Source of the DNA: Rhododendron vialii
Taxonomy: Eukaryota; Streptophyta; Magnoliopsida; Ericales; Ericaceae
Direction: 5' to 3'
NCBI RefSeq assembly: GCF_030253575.1
Contig: NC_080558.1
Location: forward strand, 878,001 to 942,000
Length of the DNA: 64,000 bases
Shown here: piece by piece, positions 5,307-63,185 of the stretch
How positions within the stretch are numbered: the first letter of the stretch is position 1
Layout: each line of letters begins with the position of its first letter
The notes under the pieces: model-generated
What the model saw: only the letters and a program-made list of their open reading frames with translations
What the model was told of the DNA's origin: nothing
The model's database searches: none
Translations under genes and position numbers: made by a program

Positions 5307-8300
5307 TCATTGAGCTAAAGAGCGCAACGCCATCTCAACTTCTTCAAGAGGTTGTCCTGCATAAAGCTTAAGTTGCCCTTTCTTCACCACAATCACCTTC
5401 ATGTTATCCGAGCTCACTGCCTCATTAAGTTCCTGAAAAGTTGGCATTTCCTACTGTCATGTTAGTACTGATAGTAAAAATTGACGTGATGCGCCACTTC
5501 AATTATTGGGGTTACGAGAACAAAGTGAGCGGTGATTTTTGCAGTCCTCTAAATTAAAAAACAATGTTGTGTTTCATATAAACTAGTAAAGAATTCCGAA
5601 TAAAGAACTCATTATAAAAAAAGTCCGAGCAGCCACTCATGAAAAATATAGTAAAAATTGACGTGATGCGCCACTTCAATTATTGGGGTTACGAGAACAA
5701 AGTGAGTGGTGATTTTTGCAGTCCTCTAAATTAAAACACAATGTTGTGTTTCATATAAACTAGTAAAGAATTTCGAATAAAGAACTCATTATAAAGAAAG
5801 TCAGAGCAGCCGGCAACCAACTAAACAAGTTGATGATAAAGCTAGTAATTATTATGCAAAATGCACGCACAGGTTTAGAATCGAGTAACATCAAGGTTCT
5901 CACTTTTGTTGGCAAAGGAACAATCTCGGCACTAAAATCACCAAGCTCTTCAAAAAAGGATTGCAGAAGATAGCAGAAGTTACTGGCATCACCCTGGTCT
6001 TCAAAGGCAATAGTATGAGATGAGTCACCCTTGCTCTCTAAGGTAAATAACCCCTTGGCTCCTTCACCATCGAGATAGCAGATAACCTGAAATAGAAGTA
6101 CCTAGTAAGAGACACAACAGAATCTTTCTCCAAAACCCACATTTTTATGGGTTTTGTTTACCTAAGAAACTGAAAACTATATAACATGCCACAAAGAATA
6201 ACCAGAAGTGACTACTTGTACATGATGCACTTCTACATGAACTTATCCACATTGAAAAAAAGAGAGAGAGAAAAGAAAATGAAACCAAATTTGAAAAAAA
6301 AAAAAACATATCAGAGTTTCTAAAGCTTCCATTCTTGCAGCTTCTGGATTTGTCCTTTACTTTGTTCGGGCAAGCGTCTATATACTTCCATAAAATGGTA
6401 ACATCATTTAGTCGTTCACATAGATGCAACTATGCAAGTGAAATGAAAAGAATTAAATCAAGTAATAAACGGTTTCTATTGACAATGCTAAGTAGTTGGA
6501 AGAATTCAAGAACCACTTCTTAATCTGTGTATTGAGTTTCAGTTTGTGCATTCAGGTTATTGAAACATCTATTGACAGAAGATTACAGGCTCAGATGTGG
6601 TACTCATGTAGTTCTGGGAAGTTTGTTCCAATATCTACTAGAGCATGTTACGGCAGCACGTTAAGACACTATAAAGTATAAACTTTCAACCTATTAAACA
6701 GAATTTGAGCAGCGCGAAGAAAACCGCTTGAGCTTACAAATTATCTGCGCCTTCACACGTTTCAAACATCTATTACAGGTGTGCTCGGAAAATTTATTTC
6801 AACATCATCTCTCCAGCCTCAATGGGGTGAAGCCAGAACTTGAAATTTCATGTGACATCTCACAAAAGCATATCCATTGCATCATCGGCAATCTTGTCCA
6901 AGTTTTGAAGGTTTTAATAACTATTCCTTTGTCTCAAATGTCCAAACATGTTTCTTCTTAGATGCTAAAAACCTAGTACTCATCTCAGGATCCCATTAAA
7001 GATTATAGTAAAATACAAAGTGGAAAAATAAACTAATAAACTGAAGATGCAACATTTCTAATCACGTACTAGAACATAAGGAAGACTCAACCACCACAAA
7101 TCAGCCTTGTCATCTGAGCGTCTATCTTCGACTTTGCCTCCTGCTCGTTTGCTTCCTATGGATGAGTTGCTTGAAATCACACCTTTAACTAAAGGCCTTT
7201 GAATTCCATTCCCCTGCGTGGAACCTAAACATTAAAAAAAAGCCACTTGAAAATGTAAAATGTAGAAGGGTTCCATTTCATAGGTTCAAAATGATATCCA
7301 TAATCTGACAAAAATGTTTCCACTTATCCAGGGATACGACAAGCACTGATGGACAAGTAGCGAAACGTAGAAAAACAATCAGAAAACTTGTCTAGTAGTC
7401 AAACAAAATTGAATACAAAAAACTAGTACTATATAAGAACAAATCCTCCCAAATAATAAATTGAAGTGGGGTTCTCTAGACGTTACCATTCCCACTTTCA
7501 GGTTTGGCAACTTCATTAAATGGGTACTTCTGTTTAAACATTATTGAGCCTGGCTTCTTCACATTCTCCTGTGCCTTCTCACTGCTTTTTGGCAAACTCT
7601 TTCGAAAATTATCCAACTCTCTTTCCACCTCCAACTCAATGCCAGTTTTAACACCATCAACATTACCGGCCGAATCCAATCTTTCCTTCTCTCGCGCCTC
7701 CCTCGCCATTGCCTGAATTTCATTAATTTTCTTTTCAAATTCAGAACCACCCACAAACCCATTTCGAACTTGTCTAAACCACAATCTCCCTCCCAACGGA
7801 TCGTTGCTTCCAGTTAAAAAAAAAACTGATCTTTCCTCACCATTTCCATCCACACCCAATTCCGAAACCCTAGTTTCTTCACTTCCACTATCCAAGTTTT
7901 CATCTTTCCGGGCAGAATTAACTAACCCAGATACCCAAACAGCACAAATTGCCTGGAAAACAAAAGCTCCAACCAAGAACAACAATACGGACCTTATTGG
8001 AAAATTACCAAACTTGCCCCTGACAACTCCAGCAGCTGCTTCCGAGGTTAAACTCTGAAGTTCTTGAGTCTCTTCTGACTCCTTCGCCACGGGTGTTTGT
8101 GCTTCTTGAGGGGACTCAAACGGGATTACAGAGTTTGTGGGTGGTGTTTTGGGAATTACAGGGTTTGTTAGGGTTTCGAGGAGTTTTTGGCGGAGGTGGT
8201 TTTTTCTTTTTGTGGGTTTTGATGGGAAGGGATTGGAAATGGAACAAAGTATGATTATTGGTTTTCTAGGTGGTGGAAAGAGGTTAGTAGACGGTGGGTG

Positions 8301-18700: not shown

Positions 18701-20508
18701 ACACAAACACTTAAGCGCACAGTCCCATTGTGGGTGGGTATACACTGCAAGTGTGTGATTTTAGAATTTCGTTTATTTTTACTCCGCACGAGTGATCCAG
18801 TTCAGACAATACTAAAGAAAATTTAATCTATATGTAAAACAAGGAGAAATTTTTACTGCATTTTTTGGAGCCAGGGGGGTTGCTACCCCCTCAAATAATG
18901 ATGCTGCCTCCCCTGATTTCCTTTTAATCCATATATACAGAATCCTTCGATTACCTTTGAACATATGAGTCAGGGGGTTTGCACATGCAGGCTATGTTAA
19001 ATCTTCTATGCACTTGGTTAATTTTCAACTCCAAAACTTTTTTTTTTTTTGATAAGTAAACTTCAAAACTAGTACATGAGCCTAGGTGGTCTTTACTCTT
19101 TCCATTCCTTGCCAATTAGTTTAGAGTTAGAAGCATTAAAATCCAAATACTTATATAGATATATATCAGACAAGAAACATAATGGATTAACAAAATTTCA
19201 ATTTGCATACCTCTTTACTGGTTTCAGACCCTTCAGATATGCATACTGATTGAACAGGACTTAGCTTGAAAAGCTGAAAAAAGATAACAGTACAAAAGAA
19301 TAAATCAATCAACCAGCTTAACCTCTTCAAGTAGACTATTTTCCATGCAACAGTGAAATCAATTTGTCATTCGAACTCTGTGACCCAAATGAATGGAATT
19401 CCGTCTTTCACCCATTCATCAGAAAGTACATGAAACAAAAATGAAACTGAAGTTCAACAAAGAAGCTTCCATGAACACTGTCTCACTTGGTCAAGTATTA
19501 TTGCCTGGTCTGGTACAGACATTATGCTTTAAAATACTTCCTTATGGATATCAACAAATGTTGGGCTTGGAGTGCCCTCATGGATTTAGTTACACAACAC
19601 CACTGCATGCGACCGCTCTAAAAACAGAATTGTGGGTGCGATGTCAAATGCCATAAAAGACTTAATTGAAACCCTCCCTAACACCAATTGGTTTTAGGAG
19701 AGATGGTGGAAAAGTGGTCCGACAGTGGTATTAAAGCTAGGAAGTCAAGGGTTCAAGTCGCAGTAGCGTCATCGTGAAGAGGGATTGTTGGGTTCGAAGT
19801 GCCCCCATGAATTAGGTTACAATGCCACACCCTGCGACCACTCCAAAAACAGACTTGCGGGTGCAATGTTGAATGCTATAAATGACTTAACTGAAACCTC
19901 CCACACCACACCAATTGGTTTTAAGAGAGATAGTGGAAAAGCAGCCCAACAAACATTTTGATTCTAAGGGCTCGTTTGGTTCACATCTTATTTGCTCATT
20001 TTCTTAGAAGGTTAAGGTTTAGCTCAACTTTGTTAGACAATAGTCCCACATTGTTTGGGTATGGAATGAGACGGGATATCACTTAATAACACGAGAGACC
20101 TCTCACTTGTTGCCAATTGGCCTCGGGTTGGACATAAAGTTTCCACAAATTTATTGTCTTATCTTATTGTTGACACCAGAAAGATGATCAAATAAGTAGT
20201 GTAGCCAAACGAGTTTTGCTTGCTCATTTACAATTTTTTTTTAAAGTGATAATCGTAGAAGACTATAAGCTTGTAAACAAAACAAGTAATAAAATTATAA
20301 CCTGAGCAGTCCGGAGAGCAACGTGAATAGCCTCGCCCGGTTCAGATTCTGCGTAGAATCGAAGCTCCGGAGCTCCGGAATCGAAGCCGAAGCGAGCAAC
20401 AACGGCCGACGAAGCAGAAATCTTCGTTGGAGGCGAAGCAAGCTCGGAGACGGAGTCTACAACGAACTCCACCAGCTGCTTGTGCTTTTGGCCCACTGTA
20501 ACCTCCAT
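9733..20508 (-). CDS. PRMT4: Protein arginine methyltransferase, CARM1/PRMT4 type
   Basis: Fifteen exons read from the right: 20508-20302, 19273-19211, 17896-17794, 17255-17112, 16844-16741, 16606-16508, 16413-16344, 14785-14689, 13650-13596, 12912-12829, 11759-11682, 11571-11468, 11179-11007, 10697-10546 and 9819-9733. All are in phase and give 539 aa, close to the plant PRMT13/PRMT14 proteins. Residues 1-125 match the N-terminal PH-like region. The SAM-binding motif [13 protein letters not shown] is at 190-201 and the post-I acid (VYAVEAS) is E217. The double-E loop has E261 and E270 (SEPMG...LLVNERM), and the THW loop is at 418-420. It is expected to place asymmetric dimethyl marks on histone H3 and other proteins in nucleus and cytosol; Arabidopsis homologues affect flowering. 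The start was chosen at MEVTVG because homologues begin so; an in-frame ATG lies 18 bases upstream. The last exon is less conserved and its 5' edge could shift by 3 bases. Introns carry several transposons. Confidence 0.93.
11915..12103. mobile_element. MITE in PRMT4 intron 10
   Basis: ACCCCGTTCGTTTTGGGATT begins the element, and AAACGAACGGGGT closes it in inverted form. The inner arms TTTGGATTT and AATCCAAAATCCAAAACCC extend the pairing. 189 bp, non-coding. Confidence 0.7.
15216..15631. mobile_element. MITE in PRMT4 intron 7
   Basis: GTCCGTTTGATTAGCGAG on the left pairs exactly with CTCGCTAATCAAACGGAC on the right, 416 bp in all. Target duplication not clear. Confidence 0.7.
16154..16188. 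repeat. Poly-T/poly-G tract
   Basis: About 19 T followed directly by about 16 G in PRMT4 intron 7. The true length is uncertain because such runs are error-prone in sequencing. Confidence 0.9.
18625..18755. repeat. Inverted repeat with internal direct repeat in PRMT4 intron 2
   Basis: AACACTTCCAGTGTATACCCAC pairs imperfectly with GTGGGTATACACTGCAAGTGT. Between the arms, the words CACTTAAGCACACACTCCCATTGTGG and CACTTAAGCGCACAGTCCC... repeat directly. Probably a small MITE. Confidence 0.45.
19559..19951 (+). mobile_element. TRIM retrotransposon with two 166-bp LTRs
   Basis: LTR 1 is 19559-19724 and LTR 2 is 19786-19951. Both are 166 bp, begin TGTTGGG and end in CA (CCGACA, CCCAACA). Right after LTR 1 comes TGGTATTAAAGC, close to the initiator-Met tRNA primer site TGGTATCAGAGC. 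A purine stretch GAAGAGGGA precedes LTR 2. The internal part is only about 60 bp, so nothing is encoded. It sits in PRMT4 intron 1. No matching 5-bp target duplication was found. Confidence 0.8.
19971..20213. mobile_element. MITE interrupted by a small LTR-like insertion
   Basis: Terminal repeats CTCGTTTGGTTCACATCTTA and the complement of AGTGTAGCCAAACGAG enclose a 145-bp block (20031-20175). The block starts TGTTAGACAATAG, contains GTCCCACATTG, and ends TTGTTGACA, like a TRIM-type LTR. Read as a MITE that later received a TRIM insertion of which only an LTR remains. Confidence 0.5.
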
Positions 20509-20575
20509 TGCTAATTTCTTCAACAAATGGTGTATATAGATAAAGATGTCTGTATGTGTGTGTACGTTTGGAAAG

Positions 20576-20603
20576 GAGAGAGAGAGAGAGAGAGGAGAGA
20601 GAT
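20576..20603 (-). repeat. (GA)n microsatellite = CT-rich leader of PRMT4
   Basis: About 70 bases upstream of the PRMT4 ATG on the minus strand. Read in the gene's direction, it is a CT run in the probable 5' UTR. Confidence 0.8.
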
Positions 20604-20866
20604 GGAGTGTGTATTAGGGTTTCTGAAAAGAGGAGAATCTGGAGCCGGCTACTGAAAGAGGTGAAGAGCGTGTGTGAATATTGTAGGCAAAGGTTGGAGT
20701 GAAGGCAAGCAAAAGCAGAACAAGTGGCTTCTTCTTCTGTGATGCTTTCTAGTTTCTATATGACGACGGTTTGTTTGGATACGGGTCAGGTTGACGGACT
20801 TTTCCGCCCAACCCGTTGCGGGTTGAGATTTTTCTACCCCCAACCCAATTCCGGGGTTCTATAGCG

Positions 20867-22742: not shown

Positions 22743-25700
22743 ATGGTACTCTCTCTCTCTCTCTCTCTCTCTACATATATATATATATATATATATATAT
22801 AGATCTGCATAATCTGGTCGATTAATCCCTAGTGCTCCTGATTCTCACTTTCGCACTTTGTACCTATTCGATTTGTTCGTTGAGTAGTTCCAGGTTTACC
22901 TATCCTTCAAGCTTTGCTCATTGGTTCCTTGAAACATTCGATTCGAGATCTAATACTTAGCATCTGGTTTGAACTTCAGACAGACAGTAGTTTTCGTTTT
23001 TAATTCCATTTTTTAGAATATTTCAGACCACAGAATGATAAATCTGAGCTTAGAATGGCGCAGGCCTAATTTTTCTTGGTTTCTTAGCTTTAATGGAATT
23101 AATTTACCGAAAAACTTCGAGGGCGGGCCGCGGGATTAAAATCGTACTTGTGTTGTTTTTTTCAAATTATGTTTCGGTTGATGGAGTTGGAGGTTACCTA
23201 TTGAGGTGCTATTACGGACATGTCTAACTACTACTCCCCACTCGCACAAGCAGGGAGTTGCACTAATTTTTATCATGATTTGAGTGAGCAGTTCCAATGA
23301 AACATTTGCAGTTCCACAATGATTTAGGAGAGTGAAGTAATTTTGGTGCTAATCTCGAACTAGAATTATGGTATTAGCGTATTAGTATATACTAGTTGTA
23401 GAAACTCGAAGACTTATGACTTTGGTCACACCCCTGCTATGGAAGACATATTTTGCTTCATGCCACTTGACAAACGAAGACGGAGTTGAAAAAATATGAA
23501 TTCGTAGGATTAGTGGTATTTGACGTAGGCATATGGGGGTGATTTACCTCGGAAGGCAACAATAGGACATGGGAAGGTAGTGAGATGCAAAATTGACGTG
23601 AGGGCCGAGGCGTAAAGATAAATTATGGTAATTATTTGGCTTGTAGCATTGTAAGGATGGCACAAGATGAATTGGTATGACGCATAACTTATAGTATCAT
23701 GGTAGTTGAGGCAAAAATTGGGCCTGTTTTGTTTTGACTTAGAAGGCATGGCAGTACCCTAAGATTTGGCTAATCATGATACCTACTTTGATACATTTAG
23801 GTTGTATTTGGATACTGGAGTTGTGTTCTGATTTTTGACTGGAAAAGAACGGCTAAGGGTTTATACTTCATCATCTTTCCCTATACTCGACTACTTCATT
23901 GTCTTTCCCTATGTAACTAAGAAAAATCCTTAACCTTTCTTTTCCCTCGACAAAACCAAATCCAGACGCATCCCTTCAGAGAACTACATCTCTACTATAT
24001 TGCAGTAGCATTCTTTGACAAGAATTCGATAAATAAGTTTCTTTGATCACACACGGAGATACACATGAGTCATATGACAGTGTTGTATGTTTATCACAGC
24101 AGAAAGGACATGCCTCCATGTAATTGAAAACGTGCCAATGTTTCTTCTTCTTTTTTTGGTTTATTTTGCTCATATGCAAACCTATATAATTTTTATAGTA
24201 GGTTGTTCGTCCTGCTTTACTCTGTTAATAAATTTGTTGTATTTTTAACAGACCATCACTAAACTGAAGTCTTACAGGAACATGAGCTTTTATGCTTGTC
24301 ACATATGTATTTTCCCGCTATAACGTATATCTCACTTCATTATGTTAGAGTTAGAACTTCTGATGCCATGATGGTTTCAACATTTTCTCTTCCTTAGATA
24401 CTGTAAGTCTGTAACCAACTAATCTCAAAGTACATATGGGACTCATTCCAGTAGAATGTGTTTGTTCCCCATGTCAAAGTTGCCTAATGATGGCCTACTG
24501 GGAACGTTAACTCCTTTAACGAACAGTCGTGTGTAGAACATTGTATTTTCTTACAAGAACATTAATGGCTGTGTCAGTATGAATGGATCAATATTGCTGG
24601 TTTTGCAGAAGGAGAACACCCCCAACACCTTTTTACCATTTATTCTCAACATTCAAATGAATTTTTTTAGGTTATAAGTTCATTCAAGAGAGAATGTGGT
24701 GTAAAAATAGGCCAAGAAATATTTACATGATCAGCTAATGGGTGGGATCACCAATCATGCAATCGTGCTCGCTGGTAGAGCTCACGTTGCAATAGCAAGT
24801 TTTTTACTTTACCCAACCTACTCGAACTTGGTCATTTGAGGTTTGTGAATGTGGTGAGAGTGAGCTATCCTACCAGCATATTTTATGATGCTCAGTAATG
24901 TGTTTCTGTAGAGCTGTAAACAGTGTACTTAGTACTAACTCACTGGTTGTGTTGGCAGGATGGCCATGACGCAGATGATCCAAAACAGAGCACGGCTGAT
25001 ATGACTGTATTTGTGAGTTTCCTTACCTGCGTAAAATGAATTATTTTTTATGATTCTTTTCCAACTTATATTACAAAGGAGTGAAAAAAATTAGAGTTCT
25101 GAAAGATACTTGCCTGTGGCTAGAAAATGGTGTAATGAAGGTACGGCCTCTTAATATGAAACCAAAATTACTGAAATTTTGGTACATTTCTTTTTCAGGT
25201 ACAAAATCTTTTGCAGCAGATGGTAAATTTATTACTTTTCAAACATTTGTTTCGTTTTGAGTCCTTGTTCTTTGTTTTGGGAATTTGATTTCTTTGCTTT
25301 TACTCTTGAATTTGCAGCAATCTAGGTTCCAAACAATGTCGGACTCCATCATTACAAAAAATATCCTTCACGGTTTCTCTGTGTTAATCTTATTATGCCC
25401 ATCAAACGTATGCTTTGATAGTTAGATATCTCAAAGATCTAAGTCATTCCCTTTGGTTTTAATATGGTTTATTTTCTTATGTCGCATTTTAAATGAATTG
25501 CTTCTGAACATGCCCATAAAATAAAATTTGAATTGCTTTGGATGGTAATAACTTATAAGATCAGCTCGTCCGTCATTGAGGTGTCCCCTGGGTTCCTGAC
25601 GGAAACACGTAGATATTAGTAGGTTTCACTTTATGCTTCACTGAGATTCAGGAAGGGACTAGTTTGCTCGCAATGACATTATTCTTTTCTCTGATGTTGC

Positions 25701-26146
25701 CTCAGTAGGGATGGGCGCTATGCTATTAAAATCTTTATTTAGTGCCATTTCATTTCCATGGTAAAAGGATTATTACTTGCCTTTTCAACTTCGCTATGAT
25801 CTCCTATCTCCACCCTCGGTGTTAGTTGTAGGAGAGGAGGATGTTTGCTTTGCAATTTCCATAACGACAATGGATGCATGTTGTCAAGCGCAATAATGTG
25901 TGGGTCATTAAACTGCTTCTGTCACATGTCTATTGTGTGCCTGTTATCTGCACAAATGCTGATATGAATTAAGTTACTTGTTTCCTTAACTGTGATCATG
26001 CACTTGATGAGATGGGCAGCCGGATAGATGAGTTGGAGCAGAGCATCAACGATTTGAGGGCTGAGATGGGGCAAGAGGGTTCTCCTTCTCCTTCATCTGC
26101 TCTGAAGCTAAAAGACGAGCCCAAATCAGCTGATGATTCGGCATAA
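22743..26146 (+). CDS. HSBP: Heat shock factor binding protein
   Basis: Five coding exons: 22743-22745 (only the ATG), 24959-25012, 25199-25222, 25318-25360 and 26004-26146, giving 88 aa. The protein opens MDGHDADDPKQSTADMTVF and continues with the strongly conserved heptad coiled coil (residues about 19-66: FVQNLLQQMQSRFQTMSDSI, then RIDELEQSINDLRAEMG) and a short Pro/Ser/Asp tail. HSBP trimerises through this coil and binds heat shock factors, dampening the heat response; in Arabidopsis it moves to the nucleus on heat. The size matches the Arabidopsis protein. Intron 4 is not GT-AG but AT-AC with U12-type signals (see separate entry). Without it the frame IITK-IDEMGSRI would break. The start is fixed by homology, since exon 2's own ATGs are out of frame. 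Confidence 0.95.
22749..22800 (+). repeat. (CT)n then (AT)n microsatellites at the HSBP exon 1 donor
   Basis: CT run 22749-22772, then AT run about 22775-22800. They begin four bases after the ATG codon that forms the whole coding part of exon 1, so the repeat abuts the 5' splice site. Confidence 0.9.
25361..26003 (+). other. HSBP: U12-type AT-AC intron of HSBP
   Basis: The intron starts ATATCCTT, the minor-spliceosome 5' consensus, and ends in AC. TTCCTTAAC, the U12 branch-site consensus, lies at 25982-25990, with the 3' splice site 13 bases later; 10-20 is normal for this class. Joining 25360 to 26004 gives ACA AAA ATT GAT GAG (T-K-I-D-E), exactly the conserved HSBP sequence. 643 bases long. 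Confidence 0.92.
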
Positions 26147-43156: not shown

Positions 43157-44384
43157 TCACCCCAGTTCCGATCCAAAGCCATCCGAGATTACATCACCGA
43201 TGAAAAGCTTCCCCAATTCTACACACAGTAACTTGGCCAACCAATTATTCTGCTGTGGTTGTTGGACGGGCGGGTATTCATAATCCAGCGGTGGCGGAGC
43301 TGGCGCGCTGGCCATTCTCGGCCCCCACTTGTAAGAGAAATTCAGCTCGCCTTCGTTGCGCTTTCCCGATGGCCTTCGAACCTGATAGTAATATTCTTAG
43401 AAAATTAGTAAAACACAAACAAGAATTATCTGAATAACGAGACCTCACATTTTCAACCGGAAAACAATGAAGAATGTGCGAGTGTATATATATACTATAA
43501 ACAATTCGGCCATTTTGCTTCATATCATTGCAAAATTCAACAAAATCACCCAGACTTATAATAAGTCACTGTCACTCTTGTGGATCTAAAAAGCATCGAT
43601 CTCTTTGAGTCAGGCCCCGTTCCCGAAATATCATTACAAGGATTTTAATGATTTTACAAGGATTTTGATAAGAACAAAAATGATTTTACAAGGATTTTGA
43701 AAAGAACAAAAATGATTTTACAAGGATTTTAATGATTTTATAAGGATTTTGACAAGAACAAAAATGATTTTACAAGGATTTTGACAAGAACAAAAATGAG
43801 TTTACAAGGATTTTAATGATTTTACAAGGATTTTGACGAGAACAAAAATGATTTTACAAGGATTTTAATGATTTTACAAGGATTTTGACAAGAACAAAAA
43901 TGAAAACAAGAATATTGTTAGAAAATTAGTAAAACATAAACAAGAATTAACTGAATGACGAGACCTCACAATTTCTACCGGAAAACAATGAACAACAAGG
44001 TGAAGACACCTGAAAATAATAATACGCCACCTGATAAGTATCGGATTGCAATAATTCGCCATCGTCAGTCGGCCCAATGAGTTCCGACAGCGGCACGTGC
44101 ACCTCACCGATGTCCTTATCACCGAGGGTCCGCTCGCAACGTATCCTGAACGTGACGCCGAGGCGGTTGCTCTGGGCGGCGGACTCCTCGACCGCGAACG
44201 TCAAGGGGAAGTTCCAGGTGGGGCTGGCGTTTCCGCTCCTGTCCACCGCGGTCCTCTGCTGCTGGTTCGCCCTCGGGTCACCGGAGATCGAAACGATGGC
44301 GTACGCGTGCGTCTTGCTGATTAGGTTGACGTTCTTGAGGTCTTTTGCGGATATCACGTTGATCTCCAAACGCCTGTACGCCAT
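43157..44384 (-). CDS. C2-domain protein, SRC2-like
   Basis: Two exons, 44384-44010 and 43381-43157, phase 0 at the junction, giving 199 aa. Residues 1-125 form a plant SRC2/BAP-type C2 domain, opening YRRLEINVISAKDLKNVN with TWNFPLTFAVEE and DIGEVHVPLSELI. Such domains bind phospholipids, often with Ca2+, at membranes. Of the usual loop acids only some are visible (D15, D89, D91), so Ca2+ dependence is uncertain. Exon 2 adds a Pro/Gln-rich linker (PAPPPLDYEYPPVQQPQQNN) and a hydrophobic end, shorter than many SRC2 proteins. Exon 1 is GC-rich compared with its surroundings. The intron holds a minisatellite. A TATA box is at 44474-44482 and a CT-rich leader at 44414-44434. Related Arabidopsis genes are annotated as CaLB-domain proteins. 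Confidence 0.88.
43391..43995. repeat. Minisatellite bounded by an 84-bp direct duplication, in the C2 gene intron
   Basis: 43391-43474 and 43912-43995 are direct copies (TTAGAAAATTAGTAAAACA...). Between them, at about 43630-43905, two unit types alternate: a 31-base unit TTTACAAGGATTTTGACAAG+AACAAAAATGA and a 20-base unit TTTACAAGGATTTTAATGAT. The array fills most of the 628-bp intron. Confidence 0.92.
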
Positions 44385-44473
44385 GTTAATATGAATTTAG
44401 CATACCAAATTTGAAGAGAGAGAGAGAGAGAGTGTCTGAGAGATGTGTGTGTACTCTTTGTGGGTGGGGAAAG

Positions 44474-60356: not shown

Positions 60357-62613
60357 CTACTGCTTGGCGCAATTGAAACCACGGCAAACAGAAAGCCAGA
60401 TTATCAAGGCCAAAAGTAACAGAATCCCGATCACAACCAACTTTGTTTTCATGTTTTTATACCACATCTTCCGCTTGATCTGCGTCGCCGTTTTCTTGTA
60501 TTGTTGGGCCTGAGATTTGTCAGATAGAGTATAGTTAATCATCCGTGGTGTTTTTTTTTGCACCTTATATAGTTGTTTGTCGCAACTTATGCCTCAGCTA
60601 ATGAGGCAAAACTATGCAGAAAATAGAAAGAAAGGCCGAAGATTATTCTTGGAAGGTAGAAATGTATCTACTTACCGAATCACATAGATCTTGAGCCTTG
60701 CCATCCAAAATTGCAAGGCTTTCTCCCCGGTCTGTAACCTGAAAAGTATACACGAGTAACATAAGTTATAACGGATGTGATAAAACTTGAAAGATTGTGA
60801 AATATTTCAACAGAGGGAAAACATAAGAATGTAAAAGAGACACAACTTTCAGTTAGAATAGCCTATTTTGTTTGTGCTCTTTCTGTAGAAACTTGTGCAT
60901 TCATCTTCGCGAAATCTGTACTTAACTAGCTTGTGATTTCACTGCACATTATTACGGAACTTTCAGTTCATACAATTATTTCCAGACTCTCAAGTATTCA
61001 AATGAGAGAGAGATTCTTCGGTTACTGATTTCAGTCTAGTCTTTCTGAGAACCAAGTAAGGCAGATTATCCAACTAATTCTGCATTCCAACGACAAAAAG
61101 ATTACTTAAGAACAAGAAAAGATCCCGACAGATCAAGCATGAAAATGTAAGAGGAAACAATGCCAACTCATGTTTTTCATTGGGTTTCTGAGGCCTAATA
61201 CGGTCTGCCAACAGCGGATGTACTCTTTCTTCATTGGATACATAGTGGATATTGGTGTGACTGGTGAATGTATTCAACTACGTAGAAAGATGGAGAATCA
61301 CGCAAAAATCTCTATGCCTTTTTCTGGGTTGCGTTATTTACTCGATTGTTCTTCGCGCGTTGCGTACTGTGGTTTGGCCGATTTCTCAAACACATTACAC
61401 ATGTTGACGTACCTTGACAATGTTGTCGAGCATAGCACTTTTAACTTGAGAGACTTGGGCCTTCACTTTCGCTAGTTTTCCAATGATCTCATCGGCATGG
61501 TCAACTGCATACTGCATATGCTCTTTCATAATGGGGCTGCAGATTTCAAATTAGGACAATGTCTTATAAGATTCATTCCATTCATCTCGATTGCACATGC
61601 ATCTCAACAATTAATGGTTCAAGTTTGTTGCGCACTCATACCGTTTTAAGAGTCTTGTACCGTATCTAACTTTTAAAATCACTTTTGAATGACCGAGATT
61701 ACAAGGACTACTCTATTATGTGGTTCAAACCTAGGGTCCTAGACTGCATAGAAGCCATTTACGTTATTCAAACAAGATTGCTTAAACATACCCAAACTCC
61801 TTGTCGAGACTTTTGGCAACAGCCGTGTCCGCTTCAGTACCACCGCCATATATCTTCTCGAAGTCTCCTTTCAGATTTTCCAGAAAAGCGAACGAAAGCT
61901 GATTCTCAACAGATTCTTTGGCAACAGCACAATAAGCTGCAAAATCCGAAACAAGAAACACGTTAAAATGAGTTTGAGACCAAAATTTTCACATTAACTC
62001 TAATTTTGTGCTAACCTAGCTGCCATACTAGTGAAATTGTCCTTTCAATCCTGCGCAGACTGCAGTAATAGTACTAGTCTGAGGACATAGTTATAACTAC
62101 ACGTACCAACGTTATATGATTCAGATGCGTATGAGGTACGCACCCATTGTGTCTCTTGAGTCTGTTAAAGCATCCAGCTCAAAACTGATCGACAACGAGT
62201 GGAGAGGCCGCCAAAACTCATACATTAGTTTTTGGACGTTATAATTAACCAATGTGGAACAAGCTCTAACAGAGACCCATGCATATGTAAAAACGTACTA
62301 CTCGGAAGCACACCTTCTCAAACACAGATTTTCCACAATGTTACATTGGTATTGCACGAAAGCATGCCTGACATTTCGCTAACATGAATGGTGGGGCAGG
62401 AAACATGGAGATCGAAAATCTACCGTAGCCGTCCTCGACGAGGAAGTTGAAGGCGTGGCGTTCGCAGTTGTAGCTGAACTTGTTGTTCGCCGATGGTATT
62501 CTGTGTAAACACTGAGTCGCCACCGCCGGAAAGTTCCCAGTCACGGCAGCGTACTCGGCCACCACCGTTGTTCCCCGAGCCACGGAGCTGTAGACAAACG
62601 ACTCTTGTCCCAT
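60357..62613 (-). CDS. VAMP724: R-SNARE of the VAMP72 group, VAMP724
   Basis: Five exons from the right: 62613-62424, 61936-61792, 61536-61413, 60738-60676 and 60509-60357, giving 224 aa in unbroken phase. Residues 1-115 are the longin domain ([40 protein letters not shown]). Residues 131-190 are the R-SNARE motif with the 0-layer arginine R157 (VTDRGESL). Residues 198-215 are the C-terminal anchor ([18 protein letters not shown]), followed by [13 protein letters not shown]72 proteins drive fusion of secretory and endosomal vesicles with the plasma membrane. The tail and overall sequence fit VAMP724 better than VAMP721/722 from memory. A damaged copy of part of this gene and of its upstream region lies at 38263-38548. 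Confidence 0.94.
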
Positions 62614-63185
62614 ATTGCGGGTGTTTCTTACAACTTTCAAGATTTTACGAAAAAATGATTCTTGAAATGAGAATCAACCTTCACAAAAAAAAAAAAAAAA
62701 ATTCGATTTAAAATTCCGAAACTGAATTCGTGACAAGCACACTAATATAAGTTTCCAAGACGCCAGAATCTAAAATCAATAGCTCTTGGGTTTTTTCTGA
62801 ACGGCGAAGAAAATTTCGTTCAATCGATAGGTCTCGATGTCGTTCAATAGATTGCTCTGTTCGTCATTATATACGTAGCATTGCTCTTGATATAATGCTC
62901 TGTTTGGTATTTACTTAGCAGCCAAGTTAGCTTCTTTATTTTCTGTTCTTCTACGAATTGGACAGCTATGAGCTAGGAACGGATCAAGCCGGGAGATGAA
63001 ACGGCGCCGTGTTGACTTGTCCGCGTGAAAACTCAGGACTTGGAAAAAATAAACTTCTCGATATTTTTTACTTTTTTTTTATTTTTTATTTACGTATCTT
63101 TGACGCGGCAAAGGTTGTGTTTTGTGATTAAAATTTGACTTTTTTTTTTTTTGGAATTTCTTCAATTCCAGCCAAGCTAGAATAA
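62614..63185. other. VAMP724 upstream region
   Basis: Promoter and leader side of VAMP724. 62810-63037 is the part also found in the pseudogene fragment. TTATATACG at 62867 is a weak TATA candidate, about 255 bp upstream of the ATG. Confidence 0.4.

What the first reader, a model, noticed from the sequence alone, without database searches (positions are those of the whole stretch)
25318..26004. Minor-spliceosome AT-AC intron splits the HSBP coiled coil
The only way to join the conserved HSBP reading frame is at an intron that starts ATATCCTT and ends AC, with TTCCTTAAC 13 bases before the end. All three U12-type signals are near consensus, and the joined codon restores the family's IITK-IDEMG sequence. 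AT-AC introns are a small minority even among U12 introns. Its presence ties a regulator of the heat-shock response to minor splicing, which is often slower and can be temperature sensitive; that functional link is inference.
Basis: partly seen in the sequence, partly recalled or inferred. Interest (0 to 1): 0.85.

Follow-up and report, generated by a model that had tools for sequence, protein, structure and literature searches.

The report
Ancient AT-AC intron in HSBP gene
A Rhododendron-like plant gene for a brake on the heat-shock response is interrupted by a rare kind of intron, and gene models from other flowering plants and from backboned animals point to the same rare intron at the same codon, so it is probably very old; whether heat regulates it is unknown.

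Summary
Confirmed. The window (532.6 Mb genome, 13 contigs, Rhododendron-like) carries a five-exon HSBP gene. Intron 4 (25361-26003, 643 nt) has near-perfect U12-type AT-AC signals: ATATCCTT, TTCCTTAAC (branch A 14 nt from the end), CAC. Of 9,900 joins tested, only this one restores IITKIDEMG. A diverged paralogue on another contig keeps the intron (ATATCCTTC...TTCTTTAAC...ATGCAC), although intron bodies agree in only 241 of 470 aligned columns.

New here: public HSBP gene models contain translated pieces of this intron. After K/R they read N-I-L, the reading of A|ATATCCTT (a GT start would read S), in 53 of 197 plant models (Amborella, Acorus, Persea, Arabidopsis among them) and 110 of 120 vertebrate models (two of the three lists came from queries containing N-I-L, so these are not frequencies). 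Re-entry residues and branch-site readings mostly fit an AC end. The intron most likely predates the plant-animal split.

A heat link is inference. A Brassica paper reports heat-altered HSBP splicing, but the text I read does not name the intron. No RNA or foreign DNA could be read. Structurally textbook; the inferred age is the interesting part.

The parts
22743..22745 (+). predicted coding exon 1 (ATG only), followed by a 2213-nt GT-AG intron
   Evidence: frame joined; prediction only, no transcript
24959..25012 (+). coding exon 2 (DGHDADDPKQSTADMTVF)
   Evidence: paralogue match 81%
25199..25222 (+). coding exon 3 (VQNLLQQM)
   Evidence: paralogue exon 3 found by translation
25318..25360 (+). 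coding exon 4 (QSRFQTMSDSIITK plus the first base of codon 42)
   Evidence: 38 of 43 bases identical in the paralogue
25361..26003 (+). intron 4, 643 nt, U12-type AT-AC, phase 1
   Evidence: same position in the paralogue
25361..25368 (+). U12-type 5' splice site ATATCCTT
   Evidence: paralogue ATATCCTTC; N-I-L readings in gene models
25982..25990 (+). U12-type branch site TTCCTTAAC; branch A at 25989, 14 nt from the intron end
   Evidence: paralogue TTCTTTAAC, one base off
26001..26003 (+). 3' splice site CAC
   Evidence: paralogue ATGCAC
26004..26146 (+). coding exon 5, from the second base of codon 42 to the stop TAA
   Evidence: 124 of 143 bases identical in the paralogue
25373..25973 (+). 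rival in-frame GT-AG pair inside the intron; would insert 14 aa (NILHVTCFLNCDHA). Rhododendron molle and R. simsii models P0011 and P0006 carry its equivalent
   Evidence: open in frame; donor GTTTCT, acceptor upstream only 40% pyrimidine

Best explanation
Intron 4 of this HSBP gene is a genuine U12-type AT-AC intron, removed by the minor spliceosome (U11/U12 recognising ATATCCTT and TTCCTTAAC, with CAC as acceptor) to rejoin codon I42 in the middle of the coiled coil. It is ancestral: the same subtype at the same codon and phase is inferred for flowering plants and vertebrates, so it was most likely present in their common ancestor. Its everyday effect is probably constitutive: full-length HSBP can be made only as fast as this slow kind of intron is removed. 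If the intron stays in, the frame stops after 21 intron-coded residues, giving a 62-aa protein with residues 1-41 (27 of the 48 Pfam-matched positions), which should not form a normal HSBP coiled coil. Shown here: sequence, paralogue, gene-model signature. Inferred: actual splicing, rate limitation, homology across kingdoms, any response to heat.
For: Unique join restoring the family sequence. Both U12 signals and an AC end at that join. Paralogue on another contig keeps the signals while the intron body agrees in 241 of 470 aligned columns. In 120 plant relatives found with the correctly spliced protein, 16 are broken at this junction (17 fail the pattern, one by plain substitution), against none at junction 2 by pattern and 3 disturbed around exons 3-4. 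N-I-L after K/R in 53 of 197 plant and 110 of 120 vertebrate models, S-I-L in 0 of 317. In-frame re-entry residue L (C|TT, an AC end) in 13 of 13 plant and 23 of 30 vertebrate cases; branch-site-like xL[ND] just before re-entry in 11 of 13 and 13 of 23 of the L cases. [quoted passage not shown]
Against: No RNA. No DNA from other species: the cross-kingdom claim rests on translated gene models, and N-I-L fixes only A[C/T]AT-. The lists were made with queries containing N-I-L. Seven of 30 vertebrate re-entries are V, F or I; Acorus P0185 re-enters with A; Ceratopteris P0159 reads N-L. The paralogue's branch site is one base off consensus. PMC10499616 gives BrHSBP1 only two exons, which if right would mean the intron is missing there (passages). 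Presence of minor snRNAs in this genome was not tested (tool not answering).
Confidence: 0.9

Rival explanations
1. Heat-responsive switch: heat limits minor splicing of this intron, HSBP falls, and HSF trimers stay active longer, so the intron acts as a thermal brake release.
For: HSBP is a negative regulator of HSFs (PMC12582567 and PMC12922113, passages). 37 C altered BrHSBP splicing and lowered transcript while 4 C did not alter splicing (PMC10499616, section 15). Minor splicing can be stress-regulated through U6atac in human cells (PMC3728624, passages). Retention truncates HSBP here.
Against: The Brassica text does not name the intron, and its 74-nt loss is not simple retention. Human heat-induced retention showed no heat-response enrichment. 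p38 activation raises U6atac, the opposite direction. AT-AC introns convert to U2 type less often anyway, so persistence needs no function (PMC2831892, passages).
Confidence: 0.15
2. The intron is real here, but the plant and vertebrate introns at this codon are not one inherited AT-AC intron: they arose in parallel, or the gene models mislead.
For: No DNA of other species was read. Fungi, invertebrates and algae were not sampled. Queries were built to find N-I-L.
Against: Same codon, phase and subtype with branch-site readings in both groups; the unbiased list already shows 7 K-N-I-L models. A referee in PMC2426677 calls parallel insertion highly improbable for shared U12 introns (passage).
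Confidence: 0.06
3. Twintron-like use: the inner GT-AG pair 25373-25973 is also spliced, giving an HSBP with 14 extra residues in the coiled coil.
For: The pair is in frame, and two Rhododendron gene models carry the equivalent 14-aa insert.
Against: Poor donor (GTTTCT) and pyrimidine-poor acceptor. Insert lengths in other plants vary from 6 to 18 with 4 of 13 multiples of 7, as expected of predictor artefacts.
Confidence: 0.04

Closest known systems
U12-type (minor) introns, AT-AC subtype
   Same: Consensus 5' splice site and branch site, AC end, branch A 14 nt from the end; one such intron among GT-AG introns of a gene.
   Different: Nothing in the signals. It lies in a heat-shock regulator, and its AT-AC subtype is inferred for both plants and vertebrates.
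U12 introns shared by human and Arabidopsis (EXOSC5 and BRCC3 in U12DB; 20 in PMC2426677; 8 of 93 in PMC7367187)
   Same: Position apparently kept since the plant-animal ancestor.
   Different: HSBP is not named in the passages or word searches I made of those main texts; their supplementary lists were not open to me, so it may be among them.
HSBP / HSBP1 family (PF06825)
   Same: Full family match, coiled-coil core, 88 aa.
   Different: No protein difference seen.

Membership tests
U12-type AT-AC intron | 5' splice site ATATCCTT (consensus recalled; cf. SMYD2 example in PMC7367187) | tested here: met
   exact at 25361-25368; example seen
U12-type AT-AC intron | branch site TTCCTTRAY close to the acceptor | tested here: met
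   25982-25990, branch A 14 nt from the end
U12-type AT-AC intron | AC end at the joined codon | tested here: met
   only join of 9,900 restoring IITKIDEMG
U12-type AT-AC intron | conservation of the signals against a diverged intron body | tested here: met
   paralogue; its branch site is one base off
U12-type AT-AC intron | removal in RNA by the minor spliceosome | not testable with these tools
   no RNA data held
U12-type AT-AC intron | minor snRNAs present in this genome | not tested
   RF00619 and RF00007 requests did not complete
HSBP1 family (PF06825) | family domain above the curated cut-off | tested here: met
   85.6 bits against 28.6
HSBP1 family (PF06825) | binding to HSF trimers and attenuation of the heat-shock response | not testable with these tools
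   known for relatives (passages)
twintron (U12 intron with competing inner U2 pair) | competing U2-type GT-AG pair of usable strength at the same place | tested here: inconclusive
   in-frame pair exists but its signals look weak; no RNA

The most novel reading that the evidence does not exclude
An AT-AC minor intron fixed at one codon of HSBP since before plants and animals split is kept because it makes the HSF brake depend on AT-AC-specific minor splicing (CENATAC and DROL1/TXNL4B class factors). It would be an ancestral post-transcriptional control of heat-shock attenuation, in which stress or temperature shifts retention of this one intron.
Probability: 0.12. Interest if true: 0.82.

Novelty: new member of a known kind. 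Interest (0 to 1): 0.52.

Why it matters
Few U12 introns are reported as shared by human and Arabidopsis (2 in U12DB, 20 in one study, 8 of 93 in another), and here the AT-AC subtype seems to have been kept in both lineages in a core stress regulator. It offers a precise, cheap test of whether minor splicing gates the heat-shock response. It also explains why HSBP gene models break at one spot in many genomes: models with N-I-L after the K/R of exon 4 are probably annotation errors (or retained-intron forms) worth correcting.

Tried and rejected
Motif pair as evidence by itself: rejected, because 75 of 200 simulated 64-kb windows contain one. GT-AG alternatives at the junction: none of those enumerated restores IITKIDEMG. 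Retrocopy as evidence of splicing: the spliced-CDS search returned 5 matches, exon by exon, at two genes; no match spans the junction. DNA of other organisms: scans of viral and prokaryotic contigs for HSBP or for the exon-intron junction confirmed no relative, as expected. Heptad-preserving insertion: 4 of 13 plant inserts are multiples of 7, no signal. Ceratopteris P0159 reads N-L, not N-I-L: inconclusive. My first join enumeration ended at a wrong coordinate and returned nothing; one search replaces it. Rfam on the window at gathering thresholds: no hits. Print check: no paper in the held library tying HSBP to a U12 or AT-AC intron was found (72 papers hold two of the three terms, 25 listed, none holds all three, since the listing puts papers with more terms first; 0 papers; 9 papers, 8 listed; 1 paper, an ovarian cancer study, listing only). 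Supplements could not be opened.

Full report
Check. The HSBP gene lies on the + strand with coding exons 22743-22745, 24959-25012, 25199-25222, 25318-25360 and 26004-26146 (that script printed the last exon to 26145, and the stop TAA ends at 26146, as used). Introns 1-3 are GT-AG. Intron 4, 25361-26003, starts ATATCCTT and ends CAC, with TTCCTTAAC at 25982-25990. I enumerated 9,900 joins: 2,122 are open, five keep the one-residue spacing K-x-DEMG, and one restores IITKIDEMG, the AT-AC join. The joined protein is an ordinary plant HSBP. Exon 1, which codes only the ATG, is a prediction without transcript support.

Chance. RTATCCTT occurs 9 times in the window (4.66 expected, 5 of 100 shuffles reach 9) and TTCCTTRAY once (4.99 expected). 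A complete motif set somewhere in 64 kb occurs in 75 of 200 simulated windows, so the motifs mean something only because the protein dictates the junction. For a fixed junction the joint chance from those means is about 2e-8 (my arithmetic).

Where it comes from. The window lies at 878001-942000 of contig C2 of a 532.6 Mb, 13-contig genome. Five of the six best protein relatives are from Camellia, Actinidia (two), Diospyros and Rhododendron, which I recall as Ericales; the sixth is Cornus. Rhododendron molle P0011 carries at its N-terminus a stretch almost identical to an ORF in this gene's intron 1 (23597-23680), and R. griersonianum P0121 ends in a tail that differs at two residues from the window's retained-intron reading. 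Thirteen chromosomes fit Rhododendron (recalled). The species is not determined.

Paralogue. A search of the own genome with the spliced CDS found a second HSBP on C4. Its intron at the same codon is 546 nt, ATATCCTTC...TTCTTTAAC...ATGCAC. Exon 4 matches in 38 of 43 bases and exon 5 in 124 of 143, but the intron body (ends left out) in only 241 of 470 aligned columns, with 176 more columns gapped. The splice signals have outlived the rest of the intron, with one base of drift in the branch site. This is DNA-level support from a second copy.

Intron pieces in gene models. Ab initio predictors handle non-canonical splice sites badly (PMC5716242, passages). In the list of 120 proteins found with the correctly spliced protein (120 shown of 647 hits), 17 failed the junction-4 pattern; one, P0047, is a plain substitution, leaving 16 broken. 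At junction 2 all 120 passed the pattern, although P0102 has an altered exon 3; at junction 3, 7 failed, 4 by plain substitution and 3 disturbed (P0089, P0102, P0103, which are also among the 16). Seven of the 120 read K-N-I-L, which is how A|ATATCCTT reads in frame; A|GTATCCTT would read S-I-L. Because of codon degeneracy N-I-L fixes only A[C/T]-AT-..., which excludes GT.

To find more I used the retained-intron protein as query (120 shown of 313) and a vertebrate-type HSBP1 with N-I-L inserted (120 shown of 411). These queries favour such models, so the proportions are not frequencies. Across, 53 of 197 distinct plant-list models carry N-I-L, one D-I-L, none S-I-L. They include Amborella, Acorus, Persea, Vitis, Arabidopsis thaliana, Brassica, legumes, cotton, Salvia, Ilex and Camellia. 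Of 120 vertebrate models, 110 carry N-I-L, 9 differ (8 of them begin N-I) and 1 (P0208) is spliced normally in a duplicated protein; mammals, birds, reptiles and fishes are represented. Human itself is not in that list. Where models run on into exon 5 in frame, the first residue is L in 13 of 13 plant cases and in 23 of 30 vertebrate cases (4 V, 2 F, 1 I otherwise). L means C|TT, an AC end; an AG end would give V. In all 36 L cases the preceding residue can be coded NNA, and an xL[ND] reading, as TTCCTTRAY would give, lies 1-4 residues before re-entry in 11 of 13 and 13 of 23. Acorus P0185 re-enters with A and was not counted. Ceratopteris P0159 is inconclusive. PMC10499616 gives B. rapa BrHSBP1 two exons and AtHSBP1 five (passages); if the former is right, the intron is missing in that copy. 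I read no DNA from these species.

Meaning. The same rare subtype at the same codon and phase in angiosperms and vertebrates is best explained by descent from their common ancestor. Published counts of U12 positions shared by human and Arabidopsis are 2 in U12DB (EXOSC5 and BRCC3; PMC2831892, passages), 20 (PMC2426677, passages) and 8 of 93 (PMC7367187, section 16). HSBP does not occur in the main text of PMC2831892 or PMC7367187 and was not in the PMC2426677 passages I saw (there I searched 'heat', 0 occurrences). AT-AC minor introns convert to U2 type less often than GT-AG ones (PMC2831892, passages), which can explain persistence without any function.

Mechanism. The minor spliceosome should remove the intron. 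[quoted passage not shown] the DROL1 paper itself was not read). Retention gives a 62-residue protein cut after half the coiled coil. HSBP is a negative regulator of HSFs (PMC12582567 and PMC12922113, passages), so retention would be expected to lift a brake. That heat does this is untested. The Brassica report (PMC10499616, section 15 and passages) shows heat-altered splicing and lower transcript but, in the text I read, not which intron. A human heat-shock study found no heat-response enrichment among genes with retained introns and does not mention HSBP1 in its main text (PMC11482332, passages). Human stress signalling through p38 raises U6atac, which would favour splicing rather than retention (PMC3728624, passages).

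Verdict. Its inferred age, in a heat-shock regulator, is the part worth following up.

Noticed in passing
L007 (G000:C4:41569500-41574500, - strand): Second HSBP gene in the same genome with the same AT-AC intron, 546 nt, branch site TTCTTTAAC.
   Followed up: yes
window, both strands: RTATCCTT occurs 9 times against 4.66 expected (5 of 100 shuffles reach 9), but only the HSBP site has a matching branch site and end.
   Followed up: partly
window 25373-25973: Inner in-frame GT-AG pair; public Rhododendron molle and R. simsii HSBP models (P0011, P0006) carry the equivalent 14-aa insert and look misannotated.
   Followed up: partly
window 23597-23680: ORF inside intron 1 that the R. molle model P0011 uses as its N-terminus; probably a prediction artefact.
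   Followed up: no
window 20266-20613 (-), 43950-44396 (-), 5763-6101 (-), 62344-62673 (-): Neighbouring coding stretches: arginine methyltransferase N-terminal PH domain (PF25350), C2 domain (PF00168), DUF3110 (PF11360) and a Longin-like stretch below its curated cut-off (PF13774).
   Followed up: no
public gene sets: Many HSBP records listed contain translated intron (N-I-L after K/R) and are probably misannotated at this junction.
   Followed up: yes
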